Shown: positions 14,579-53,619 of the stretch, piece by piece
Numbering within the stretch: the first letter of the stretch is position 1
How the letters are laid out: each line of letters opens with the position of its first letter
DNA from: Henricia sp. BOLD:AAB3569
Taxonomy: Eukaryota > Echinodermata > Asteroidea > Spinulosida > Echinasteridae
DNA length: 64,000 bases
Assembly (NCBI GenBank): GCA_037783545.1
Contig: JBBELK010000368.1
Location: 1,364,001 to 1,428,000 of the forward strand
Direction of reading: 5' to 3'
The notes under the pieces: model-generated
The model's input: only the letters and a program-made list of their open reading frames with translations
What the model was told of the DNA's origin: nothing
Databases searched by the model: none
Position numbers and translations under genes: made by a program

Positions 14579-14751
14579 CAATAGACTACTAAAGTGAGAA
14601 CGTCACCCTTTGTGTGTTGCCATGGTTTTTGGGTCTACACTAAAAACCAGTGAACTGTTTCCCTGCGCTATACCTTTTAGATTACCAGCAAATGTTTAGA
14701 CCCAATTACCATGGCAACTGACGTCACACTTTAGTAGTCTATTGGTAGGTG
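14579..14751. mobile_element. Inverted-repeat element upstream of gene B
   Basis: Ends ATAGACTACTAAAGTG and, inverted, CACTTTAGTAGTCTAT. The TTGCCATGG motifs inside are part of the arms, so they are not counted as a gene B X-box. Related arms at 18478-18515 and 19140-19230. Confidence 0.65.
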
Positions 14752-35769: not shown

Positions 35770-39592
<3,823 letters not shown>

Positions 39593-39766
39593 TTTTCCTG
39601 GTTTTGATGGCGAAAATTTCAAAAAAAGAGAGAGAGAGAAAATCGCTCCGTTGACAGGCGCTTGTTGATCTTGAGATCCGGTTATTATGACGGCGAGTCG
39701 GCAATTGTCTCATCGAAACCCAGCGGTCTTGTCAACTGATACCACATGACTGTGTGCTGACAGCTG

Positions 39767-39771
39767 ATTGG
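39767..39771 (-). promoter_or_regulatory. CCAAT box of gene E promoter
   Basis: CCAAT on the minus strand within GACCAATCAGCTG, about 177 bp upstream of the gene E ATG. The same block occurs at the same distance in gene F, inside a stretch of promoter homology. Confidence 0.6.
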
Positions 39772-39819
39772 TCCATCGACCGATGCGTCCAAGGTTACAA
39801 AGGGAGAAAATGGCTTCGG

Positions 39820-39833
39820 GTTGCCATGGTTAC
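39820..39833 (-). promoter_or_regulatory. RFX-type X-box of gene E promoter
   Basis: Minus-strand GTAACCATGGCAAC, an imperfect palindrome that fits the X-box consensus bound by RFX factors at ciliary genes. It lies about 235 bp upstream of the ATG and about 15 bp from the left end of an inserted retroelement. The gene F promoter carries the equivalent site. Confidence 0.65.
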
Positions 39834-39848
39834 AGTCACCGCTGGATG

Positions 39849-41760
39849 TGGAATTTCTTTTCGTTTTAGAACGACAGGTGCCAGTGTATTCACACTGAAC
39901 ACAATAGAATTACATAACAACTGGCTATATAAACGCCACGTTCGCTTCAGTAGCTCACTCTCGGTCAATCGTGTCAACTTTGCTGTACAATCCTATTCTA
40001 CACACTCTTCACGCACCGCATCGAACATGTCCCTCGAACCGGGCGTCGGCGGTTCGGAGTCCGGTACCAGCAGTGATCAGATACTGAACGCTATCCAGGC
40101 CCTTTCTAAGTCATTAGACTTCAAGGTCGAATCGGCTTGCAAGAAGCTACGCTTATCAGACGTTCCGACGTTCAAACGCGACGGCATCAACAGCAGCACA
40201 AGCACTGCGAGAAGCTTCTTTCGCTTGTCGAGTCGGCCATTCAGAACATTGACAGCCTTGACATCGACTCGGCCAAGACCGACTGGAACGCCGCCGTTAA
40301 GTCCATCAAGGAACGTCAAAAGCTCATACGACTTGCTGACCGTTCTGATCTCGGCTGGGGAGTTGTGAAAGAGTACATCGCAGAAACGTCTAATTGAGGC
40401 GGCATAGACATTTGCGTCCACCCAGTCGTATGGCACTGAGTTTATAACACATTTTATTCGATCGTTTGGTATCGAATTCGATTTGAGGGACAGAGGAGTT
40501 TTTGTCCGTCCAATATTGGCATCGAGCACATCGTTCAAAGTTTAATCTCACAATGTTTTAAAATTGTTGATCTTTTCACACCGGAACTGGCAATCGTAAT
40601 TTGTCATTTAATACCTTTTTTACCTTTGTTGTTTTTTCCGCGTTCCGCGTGCACCGAAGGCCAGTAAACGTCTATTTGAGGCGGCATAGACATTTGCGTA
40701 TACACAGTCGTATGGCACTGAGTTTATAACACATTTTATTCGATCGTTTGGTATCGAATTCGATTTGAGGGACAGCGGATTTTTCATTTTATTTTATTTT
40801 ATTTTTGTCCGTCCAATATTTGGCATCGAGCACATCATTCAAAGTTTAATCTCACAATGCTTAATTGTTGATCTTTCCACACCGGAACTGGCAATCGTAA
40901 TTTGTTATTTAATACCTTTTTACCTTTGTTGTTTTTTGTTTCCCCTTTGCCCTTTCTTTTGCGACTTTCTATAGACTACAGCAAGGTTCGCACAACGACC
41001 TAGCCACTGTTCACCATTGGAAACATTTGACCTGTTTTTGTCCTTTTCTCGTCTCACATGAGGTATAAATAGAAAAGAAATGAATTTTCTGACGGAAGTA
41101 TGGAGGAAGAAAGTGGAATTTCTTTTCGTTTTAGAACGACAGGTGCCAGTGTATTCACACTGAACACAATAGAATTACATAACAACTGGCTATATAAACG
41201 CCACGTTCGCTTCAGTAGCTCACTCTCGGTCAATCGTGTCAACTTTGCTGTACAATCCCGCCCACCCCATTTTCCCACTTCAATCGGAATTCGGACCGGG
41301 GGAGTGCACCCCTGTCGAGTGCCCTGGATGCACCCACGTTTCCTCCAATGGCTGGGGGTTTTTCGTGGCCACCGAGCGCCAGCACACAGTGCTGGTCCGA
41401 CACTCGACCCGAATTCAGTTTCAGTTCCGACACACGTGTTTTATTTTCTCTTTCGGCTTGATTGATTCTGACCGATTTTAGCACGGTGATAATTATTGAA
41501 CTTCGACACTTTATTGTCGAGACCTAGATACTGTGAACTTTTTAAATTCGTTTAGGATATTACATTTGTGCATATAATTTGATCCTAATCAAGCTGATTA
41601 GCGGAGTTTAAAATAAATCGAACAGCAAGGTTCGCACAACGACCTATAGCCACTGTTCACCATTGGAAACATTTGACCTGTTTTTGTCCTTTTCTCGTCT
41701 CACATGAGGTATAAATAGAAAAGAAATGAATTTTCTGACGGAAGTATGGAGGAAGAAAGT
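39849..41760 (+). mobile_element. DIRS/Ngaro-like retroelement relic with split direct repeats
   Basis: Repeat A occurs at 39849-39993 and 41114-41258 (both 145 bp). Repeat B occurs at 40978-41113 and 41622-41760. The order A1-gag-B1-A2-B2 is the split direct repeat layout of PAT/Ngaro elements. Between A1 and B1, from about 40027, a gag-like frame begins MSLEPGVGG. After a 1-base frameshift near 40185 it continues to KSIKERQKLIRLADRS and GWGVVKEYIAE, a motif known from ORF1 of DIRS-type elements. Reverse transcriptase, RNase H and tyrosine recombinase are missing. A segment of about 285 bp (40387 on) is tandemly duplicated. Confidence 0.65.
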
Positions 41761-41819
41761 TGAATTATAGATTGGGCGATTCAGTACAACTTGGAGTTTT
41801 GAATTTATCATGCTTGTTT

Positions 41820-42125
41820 GCAGTTACCCAAAATTTGACTTCACGAGTTGACAAGAAAAACACCACTAAAAGTGTTGATAGCAATGGTAACAAAAACCAC
41901 ATAATTTTTATTTCATGTACAATGATACAATTTTGTGGGAGAAATTGCCAACTAAAGGTGGTTTTAAAAAACAATTGTCTGCAGACAATTTTTTTACCAT
42001 TCATTCAACACAAAAACCATGCATGGATTTTATGGTTTTCTGAAGTATTATTATTTCTGCATCTATGGCTGAAATTTCTACAAGGCAGTTTTCAACATTA
42101 TTCTTTAGTTATGTAATGCTGTTGT
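41820..42125 (+). repeat. High-copy dispersed repeat
   Basis: Core motifs AAAACCATGCATGGATTTT, GAAATTGCCAACTNAAGG and AAGGCAGTTTATCAACATTA. Related copies: 20525-20925 (-), 38690-38945, 51040-51160 (-), 52440-52700, 52895-53030, 54140-54700 (split by a SINE), 55625-55740 (-), 56090-56420 (-) and 60940-61010 (-). No coding capacity. Confidence 0.65.
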
Positions 42126-46074: not shown

Positions 46075-50383
<4,309 letters not shown>

Positions 50384-50563
50384 TTTTGTTGATTTGACGA
50401 GTTAAAATTCCCAGGAATTTTAAAAATTGTCTCGCAAAGCGGCGCTTGTTTGATCTAGGCGAGAACCGGTTTAAAGACGGGAGTCGGCAGTGCGTATATT
50501 TGCGCCTCATCGAAAACCAGCGGTATTATCAACTCATCCCACGTGACTACGTGCTGGCAGCTG

Positions 50564-50568
50564 ATTGG
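50564..50568 (-). promoter_or_regulatory. CCAAT box of gene F promoter
   Basis: CCAAT on the minus strand in GACCAATCAGCTGCCAGC, about 183 bp upstream of the ATG. Position and flanks are conserved with gene E. Confidence 0.6.
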
Positions 50569-50599
50569 TCGAGGTTGGAAGCCGATAAAATGGCTTCAG

Positions 50600-50613
50600 G
50601 TTGCCATGGTTTC
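50600..50613 (-). promoter_or_regulatory. RFX-type X-box of gene F promoter
   Basis: Minus-strand GAAACCATGGCAAC, one base off the gene E site (GTAACCATGGCAAC). It lies about 220 bp upstream of the ATG, next to a shared AAAATGGCTTC block. The right half-site is intact and the left half-site is weakened. Confidence 0.5.
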
Positions 50614-50639
50614 TGCCAGCGTTTACTGTGAAATTATAA

Positions 50640-52169: not shown

Positions 52170-53619
52170 CACAAATTCCACATTAATTATGCCCAGTGTG
52201 TCTGAGCTGCAGTTTCGGATCCATTGTTATGACCATTTTCTATAATAATGTATTGATTCTAGTGAAGCATGACAATGTAGATAGACGCGGTATTTATGAT
52301 AATGCTTTTGGGACGCCTTCGAGGTTACGGTGTATTCATTTAGTGGTTACTTTTAAAATTACAAATTTGGCATCAGGTATATATGATATATACTGTTACC
52401 ATTTTAGTTTTTCGACTTTGATTAAAGCTCAATACATCATTTGCAATTACCCAATTTTTCATGAGTTGACAAGAAAAACCTTACTCAAAGTGTTGATAGC
52501 AATGATAACAAACACCACATGAATTTATTTCCGTCAAAAATGGTATTTCATGTTGGAAATTGACAACCGAAGGCGGGTTTCTAAAAAAGTCCCGTGTACA
52601 CAAAATCCGTATATATATTTTCAAGGTTTTCTAAAGCACTGATGCATCTAGCTAAAATTTCTTCAGGCTAGTTTACCAACATTCTTCCTTAGATATGTTA
52701 CACTCTTGCGAATGATACATATAGGGCCTTTAATAGACGGCCTGATATTAATTTAGTGATTACTTTTAAAGGCAGTATACATCATTGGTAATTGGTAATA
52801 AACATGGTGACCGTAGAAAACCTCCCCTAAAATGGTTTTGTCTGAAGTGCTATAGTCTTTGAGAAATGAGTAAAACAATTTTCGTCTCATGAGTGTGAAT
52901 GAATTGTCAAAAAACGATGCATATATTTTTCACGTTTTCTAAAGTATTACTGCATCTATGTGGCTGAAATTTCTTCAAGGCAGTTTATCAACATTATTCT
53001 TTAGTTATGTAATGTTGTTGTTCATGGAATTCTTAAAAACGTTAATGACGTGTAATGGCTTTTAAAAAATAAACTATTTTGTCCAAAGTCGATTCATTTC
53101 TAAAACCTCTTTAGTGTCCAAAAACAATGATGGTGTTCAAGTCACGTATACACGTATAAATAATGCATAGCTCATTTTGCAAAATTGTGAACTATTTTCT
53201 AAACGAATATCGAAAATTCATGACAAATTTGAAAACCTGTTTAGTGACACCTCATTTTAAATGGGAAAAATATCAATATTTGTATCCCTACACCCATGCC
53301 TTGTGCGTACGTGTTCGCAACAGTTTTGTTGTAATAGTGACGTGGTCCTTTGATGATTAAATGTTGGGCTTAATTATCCTTGGTCAACGCCCATTAATTA
53401 CTTAGGCCTTGTATTTTACGATCGCAAAACCACTCTTCCAATTAGATGCCAGCATCTTGACTGGGAGTCGTTGTACTGTTGACGACGGGGGGAAATGAAG
53501 GTCGTTTTTGTTCGAAGTACCCATCGATAGAAGTACCCGGTAGATGTCGAAGGTCATATATGAGATCGAGGATGACCGTGCGTTCCCGCGTGTAAAGTGC
53601 TGTTAATTAGACTACAGCG

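What the first reader, a model, noticed from the sequence alone, without database searches (positions are those of the whole stretch)
39593..39850. Ciliary-type X-box and CCAAT in the shared promoter of alpha-tubulin genes E and F
Upstream of the E and F ATG exons an aligned block contains CCAAT (39767, 50564), an AAAATGGCTTC block and GTAACCATGGCAAC / GAAACCATGGCAAC (39820-39833, 50600-50613). The E site fits the RFX X-box consensus. The other four promoters lack it. RFX factors drive ciliary genes in animals, so E and F may be the tubulins supplied to cilia or flagella.
Basis: partly seen in the sequence, partly recalled or inferred. Interest (0 to 1): 0.72.

Follow-up and report, generated by a model that had tools for sequence, protein, structure and literature searches.

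The report
Conserved X-box promoter in two tubulin genes
Two alpha-tubulin genes of an echinoderm share a promoter block of about 230 bases that has outlived its surroundings and carries a switch site like those of cilia genes, complete in one gene and half-decayed in the other, so a role in supplying cilia is plausible but unproven.

Summary
GTAACCATGGCAAC (39820-39833, minus strand, 241 bases before E's inferred ATG) fits the RFX X-box consensus exactly; F's GAAACCATGGCAAC has one mismatch. The promoters are homologous: 178 of 232 ungapped aligned columns are identical, while first introns show no similarity, and E's block finds only F in the 740 Mb genome. The X-box plus GAAGCCATTTT is the longest near-perfect block, but it does not stand out significantly from the module's own mean identity.

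An exact X-box this near an ATG is unlikely by chance (about 0.007 per 400 bases); F's site alone is not (about 0.14). CCAAT boxes are common in this tubulin array and are no ciliary mark. "The other four lack it" needs qualifying: B has repeat-borne X-box-like sites 656-758 bases upstream, D's ATG exon was not found, and gene I, outside the window, has an exact N3-spaced X-box. In 283 kb scanned, 26 of 43 strong X-box-like sites cluster with a dispersed MITE-like repeat, so motif counts mislead here; E/F are outside it. RFX-domain exons exist in the genome, and RFX control of tubulins has a precedent. Related species and expression could not be tested.

The parts
39590..39592 (-). inferred start codon (coding part of exon 1) of alpha-tubulin gene E, followed by a GTGAGT donor
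   Evidence: no transcript evidence
39593..39847 (-). E promoter and 5' leader, homologous to F's; no TATAAA-type box in it
39820..39833 (-). X-box GTAACCATGGCAAC, exact match to GTNRCC-N2-RGYAAC
39807..39817 (+). AAAATGGCTTC block (GAAGCCATTTT in the gene's sense), identical in F; resembles a YY1 core CCATNTT (motif recalled)
39785..39798 (-). weak second X-box-like site GTAACCTTGGACGC, in E only
   Evidence: recalled weight matrix, score 12.2; not kept in F
39767..39771 (-). CCAAT box in the conserved block GACCAATCAGCTG
50381..50383 (-). inferred start codon of alpha-tubulin gene F, followed by a GTGAGT donor
50384..50630 (-). F promoter and 5' leader, homologous to E's
50600..50613 (-). 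degenerate X-box GAAACCATGGCAAC: one perfect half-site (GTTGCC on the + strand), one mismatch in the other half
50564..50568 (-). CCAAT box of F in the same conserved block
50296..50309 (+). further X-box-like site GTTACCATAGAAAC (one mismatch) in F's first intron, about 75 bases after the ATG
35773..37358 (-). gene E, coding exons after the ATG exon (alpha-tubulin, K40 present, ends EY)
46078..48452 (-). gene F, coding exons after the ATG exon (alpha-tubulin, K40 present, ends EY)

Best explanation
E and F carry two diverged copies of one TATA-less proximal promoter of about 230 bases. In the gene's sense it runs: X-box, GAAGCCATTTT, CCAAT box with an adjoining E-box, then leader and ATG. I propose that an RFX protein binds E's palindromic X-box as a dimer, works with NF-Y on CCAAT, and raises transcription in cells that build cilia or flagella, so that E is one alpha-tubulin used when axonemes are made. 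F keeps one good half-site and probably binds RFX more weakly. Shown: the sites, their places, the homology, and the loss of similarity in the first introns. Inferred: the ATG exons, RFX and NF-Y binding, the transcription start, the cell type and any ciliary role of the proteins.
For: Exact consensus match at -241, expected 0.0073 times per 400 bases. Homologous module: 178 of 232 ungapped columns identical; the longest block with at most one mismatch (25 columns, 39831-39807) is most of the X-box plus GAAGCCATTTT, P 0.004 against a neutral identity of 0.62 taken from E/F synonymous differences. First introns (2,231 and 1,928 bases) give no blastn hit. Only F matches E's block in the genome search. 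The site does not cluster with the repeat family. 13 exon-level RFX DNA-binding matches on 6 contigs. CFAP20 and IFT57 have X-boxes near their starts. Precedents: consensus GTNRCC N0-3 RGYAAC (PMC10530576, passages); Rfx2 controls expression of tubulins in Xenopus (PMC3889689, passages); deciliation of sea urchin embryos stimulates tubulin transcription (PMC12183034, passages).
Against: F's site misses the consensus at one position, and such sites are expected 0.14 times per 400 bases. Against the module's own identity (0.767) the X-box block is not exceptional (P 0.19), so selection on the X-box is not separated from selection on the promoter. E and F were sisters in 0 of 200 bootstrap trees of partial coding sequence, so a shared function does not follow from kinship. 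Three of five located ciliary starts have no X-box within 400 bases. Gene I has an exact N3-spaced site too. K40 is kept by 12 of 15 array genes, so the proteins do not single out E and F.
Confidence: 0.45

Rival explanations
1. The module is a general TATA-less promoter (NF-Y, YY1-like and RFX sites) for constitutive or proliferative tubulin supply; an RFX factor may bind, but the gene is not specially ciliary.
For: 10 of 13 array starts printed have a CCAAT box, either orientation, 150-250 bases upstream; no TATAAA-type box in the module; GCCATTTT resembles a YY1 core (recalled); RFX-domain exons lie on 6 contigs; in lineages that lost cilia, RFX regulates non-cilia genes (PMC12183034, passages).
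Against: A complete X-box is rare in the tubulin promoters: 2 of 20 candidate promoters, E and I.
Confidence: 0.33
2. E's X-box works and F's is a decaying relic: F has lost full RFX control, so the pair has split in regulation.
For: The one difference in the 14-mer falls on a consensus T; E has a second weak X-box-like site that F lacks.
Against: The rest of the block is kept in F; F has a further one-mismatch X-box-like site in its first intron (50296-50309); half-degenerate X-boxes can be bound (recalled).
Confidence: 0.35
3. The X-box resemblance is coincidental: the palindrome is kept for another factor or by short divergence alone.
For: One-mismatch sites are frequent (78 hits with up to one mismatch in the 164 kb array region against 68 in the control); outside the repeat family strong sites are no commoner than in the control (17 including E and F, against 24 at score 14 or more).
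Against: E's score was reached by no control position in 283 kb; exact sites are expected about 0.1 times in the 14 array candidates and 2 were seen.
Confidence: 0.15
4. The X-box was brought in by the dispersed X-box-carrying repeat.
For: 26 of 43 strong X-box-like sites in 283 kb cluster in one repeat group, including one upstream of gene B.
Against: E and F contexts match only each other; the E block has only F as a match in the genome search; no repeat place covers them.
Confidence: 0.03

Closest known systems
RFX X-box promoters of ciliary genes (animals and choanoflagellates; PMC10530576, passages)
   Same: Exact palindromic consensus with a 2-base spacer in E, near the start of the gene
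   Different: Binding and ciliary expression not shown; F is half-degenerate; the gene is one of many alpha-tubulin paralogues
Rfx2-controlled tubulins in Xenopus multiciliated cells (PMC3889689, passages)
   Same: Tubulin genes as RFX-dependent genes
   Different: There from perturbation and genomic data; here from motif and conservation only
Paracentrotus lividus Tuba1a, ciliary-band alpha-tubulin (PMC5283682, passages)
   Same: Echinoderm alpha-tubulin whose first exon ends at the ATG and is followed by an intron
   Different: That gene needs a TATA box and a forkhead site in its first intron, and 'RFX' occurs 0 times in the main text; E/F have no TATAAA-type box in the module and their first introns share no similarity
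MHC class II X-Y promoter, RFX plus NF-Y (recalled)
   Same: X-box and CCAAT box in one proximal promoter
   Different: The gap between X-box and CCAAT differs: 48 bases in E, 31 in F

Membership tests
RFX-regulated ciliary promoter | Match to GTNRCC N0-3 RGYAAC | tested here: met
   E exact; F one mismatch, so met by E only
RFX-regulated ciliary promoter | Site close to the transcription start | tested here: inconclusive
   241 and 230 bases before the inferred ATG; the start site itself is unknown
RFX-regulated ciliary promoter | RFX factors present in the organism | tested here: met
   13 exon-level PF02257 matches on 6 contigs; gene number not worked out
RFX-regulated ciliary promoter | Motif conserved beyond its surroundings | tested here: inconclusive
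   the module is conserved and the introns are not, but the X-box block is not above the module mean; no related species available
RFX-regulated ciliary promoter | RFX binding and RFX-dependent expression in ciliated cells | not testable with these tools
   no binding or expression data
Repeat-borne X-box | Flanks similar to the X-box repeat family | tested here: not met
Axonemal alpha-tubulin | Lysine 40 available for acetylation | tested here: met
   both have K40, but so do 12 of 15 array genes, so it does not discriminate
MHC class II-like X-Y module | Fixed spacing of X-box and CCAAT | tested here: not met
   48 and 31 bases between the sites (coordinates)

The most novel reading that the evidence does not exclude
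In this echinoderm, alpha-tubulin paralogues of one array are told apart mainly by promoter: E, and in part F, keep an old RFX/NF-Y module while coding regions have been reshuffled. At the same time an abundant, little-diverged MITE-like repeat spreads ready-made X-box, CCAAT and TGACGT sites, with copies within about 750 bases of the inferred starts of IFT20 and IFT57, so it could be recruiting or rewiring ciliary genes.
Probability: 0.1. Interest if true: 0.7.

Novelty: new member of a known kind. Interest (0 to 1): 0.38.

Why it matters
Which of many near-identical tubulin genes feeds the cilium is hard to tell from coding sequence. A short promoter module that outlived its introns and carries an X-box gives a direct, testable candidate in a 15-gene array. 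The repeat result is a warning: in this genome, motif scans for RFX targets will return many repeat copies unless these are masked.

Tried and rejected
Genome-wide X-box excess as proof of RFX use: 8,937 exact strand-matches against 2,089 for the reversed pattern. Since 26 of 43 strong sites in the 283 kb scanned cluster with a repeat, I do not use the excess. I did not measure what share of the 8,937 is repeat-borne.

Beta-tubulin with the same promoter: the two beta starts found in five fetched loci have no X-box within 400 bases; one has a weight-matrix hit at -472. The other beta genes' starts were not found or not fetched.

Ciliary controls that failed: B9-domain genes, first exons not located, upstream sites partly in repeat copies; BBS5, first exon not located and nothing fetched; a third, sub-threshold tektin-like locus on C58, scanned with my weight matrix only, none.

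Two of my own tests were mended on checking. The block statistic dropped alignment gaps, so its 29-column block runs across gaps and is not the X-box block; breaks blocks at gaps and gives 25 columns at the X-box. The 'further upstream' test compared F with what is mostly the retroelement-like insertion beside E; one search compares the DNA beyond it: one 157-base hit at 77% (E 41817-41971, F 52440-52588) at quite different distances, in a stretch that by eye recurs elsewhere in the window, and none in the first 500 bases.

E and F as a sister pair: not supported. A FoxJ1-type site beside F's X-box (GTAAACG, by eye): not kept in E, not pursued. Orthologous loci of related species: the genome-contig collection is bacterial and archaeal, so not possible. 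My weight matrix was written from recall; the scans use the published consensus.

Full report
Setting. The window is C368:1364001-1428000 of a 740 Mb genome. COX1 has AAA where Asn and ATA where Ile is expected at well-conserved places (expectation recalled), the echinoderm code; a cluster of tRNA genes lies directly upstream of cox1, which I recall as the asterozoan order (sea stars, brittle stars). A motif scan of C368:1274001-1438000 finds 15 alpha-tubulin genes with an N-terminal exon. Six are in the window (A-F); nine lie to its left (G-O in my naming).

The observation. The letters and coordinates are right. E's ATG exon is inferred at 39592 and F's at 50383, each followed by a GTGAGT donor. 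E's site is an exact X-box; F's has one mismatch. F has a further one-mismatch X-box-like site at 50296-50309, just inside its first intron.

Chance. RTNRCCNNRGYAAC with up to one mismatch has 28 strand-matches in the window against 10.7 in shuffles. The exact consensus GTNRCCNNRGYAAC has 8,937 strand-matches in the genome against 2,089 for the reversed pattern (palindromes count twice). I do not take this as evidence of regulation: of 43 strong sites in the 283 kb scanned, 26 fall in one group linked by flank similarity, E and F form a pair of their own, and 15 are single. With half-sites and 0-3 base spacers the 164 kb array region has 6 exact sites against 3 in the control, and 78 against 68 with up to one mismatch. 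Of 20 candidate promoters examined there (14 in the array, counting two alternatives for gene O and an uncertain one for H; 4 at dispersed alpha loci; 2 beta), 2 have an exact site (E; and I, GTCACC-AAT-GGCAAC at -166, overlapping a CCAAT box) and 2 more have one mismatch (F; H). No ATG exon was found for D and G, so they were not tested.

The module. E and F promoters align over 274 columns, 232 ungapped, 178 identical (47), blastn E about 1e-20. Their first introns (2,231 and 1,928 bases) give no hit at E 0.1, while the coding exons do. Upstream, E is interrupted 15 bases beyond the X-box by a retroelement-like insertion; beyond that insertion only one out-of-register hit is seen, in a stretch that recurs elsewhere. 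Synonymous differences between E and F are about 0.38 per site. Breaking at gaps, the longest block with at most one mismatch is 25 columns: most of the X-box plus GAAGCCATTTT (39831-39807); next is GACCAATCAGCTG-CAGCAC with the CCAAT box (20). P for a block of 25 is 0.004 at a neutral identity of 0.62, 0.025 at 0.70, and 0.19 at the module's own 0.767. So the module is conserved, and the X-box block is its longest part, but it is not shown to be under stronger constraint than the rest. E's block matches only F in the genome search (that search skips very common words). By partial coding sequence (exon 2 and the last exon, 376 codons) E and F are sisters in 0 of 200 bootstrap trees, though 11 of 15 inner branches of that tree are open. 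The likely reading is an old shared promoter with coding regions altered since, perhaps by gene conversion (inference).

What the module holds. In the gene's sense: X-box, GAAGCCATTTT, CCAAT in GACCAATCAGCTG, CACGTG (F) or CATGTG (E), then about 150 bases to the ATG. No TATAAA-type box lies in it. CCAAT boxes are common at this distance in the array (10 of 13 starts printed, either orientation).

Controls in the same genome; starts inferred from open frames. CFAP20: GTCGCC-A-GGCGAC at -173, one mismatch. IFT57: exact GTAACCATGGTAAC at -343 (C348) and -356 (C635), a few bases outside a repeat copy. IFT20: none within 400; one-mismatch sites at -424 and -522, in a repeat copy. Tektin C777: none with up to one mismatch in 1,460 bases. 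Tektin C274: one, at -1078. So 2 of 5 located ciliary starts have a site within 400 bases, too few for a rate.

The repeat. The IFT20 copy is 171 bases, with 16-base terminal inverted repeats and an inner 27-base inverted repeat that holds an X-box-like palindrome and a CCAAT in each arm, next to ACGTCA-type sites. A genome search gave 2,063 first-look candidates, of which 40 were scored; besides the query itself and one short piece, the 40 rows listed are 96-99% identical. In the stretches searched this form has 20 places, one of them upstream of gene B (14581-14742). A paper search for MITE or transposable element with RFX, binding sites and X-box listed 6 papers, none on this by title and abstract start; that is one search of an open-access library.

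Known background, all from passages: X-box consensus and RFX in ciliogenesis (PMC10530576; PMC12183034); Rfx2 controls tubulin expression in Xenopus (PMC3889689); sea urchin FoxJ1 induces ciliary genes in zebrafish (PMC3493443); P. lividus Tuba1a needs a TATA box and an intronic forkhead site and its main text does not mention RFX (PMC5283682). In a C. elegans ciliome paper the word tubulin does not occur in the main text (PMC10393296), so it says nothing for or against.

Verdict. A real, conserved promoter module with one full and one half X-box. RFX control of E is plausible; a ciliary role for E and F is a fair hypothesis, not a result.

Noticed in passing
window 39848-41766: A retroelement-like insertion starts 15 bases beyond E's X-box. 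Split direct repeats: 39848-39993 and 41113-41258 (100%), 41001-41120 and 41647-41766 (99%); the arrangement recalls tyrosine-recombinase (Ngaro-type) elements (recalled). The near-identical repeats suggest a recent event.
   Followed up: partly
L047 513-683; window 14581-14742; other places: MITE-like repeat of 171 bases with paired X-box-like and CCAAT sites and ACGTCA-type sites; 2,063 first-look candidates in the genome, 40 scored, listed copies 96-99% identical. Copies lie upstream of the IFT20 and IFT57 starts.
   Followed up: partly
gene I, C368 + strand, ATG about 27.1 kb left of the window: Alpha-tubulin promoter with an exact N3-spaced X-box at -166 that overlaps a CCAAT box, and a TATA box at -131.
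   Followed up: partly
window genes B (11553) and D (29236), and gene N left of the window: These alpha-tubulins lack lysine 40 (B and N have Thr; D has an altered loop), so they could not be acetylated there.
   Followed up: no
genes J, K, L, left of the window: Their promoters share a block like CATTGAAGCTACA-CGTGT between CCAAT and ATG, seen by eye; perhaps a second promoter type in the array.
   Followed up: no
contig C955: Three COX1 copies spaced 16,221 bases apart on one contig, plus one on C2104: probably a concatenated mitochondrial genome in the assembly.
   Followed up: no
C1/C888 (CFAP20), C348/C635 (IFT57), C151/C785/C1894 (tubulins): Genes found on paired contigs with like scores suggest retained haplotypes in the assembly, useful as allelic comparisons.
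   Followed up: no
window, from about 43140: Tandem repeat with a unit of about 69 bases (GTGCTGTAGTCAAGGCTTTCACTAGGCC...), seen by eye; it gives a repetitive open frame.
   Followed up: no
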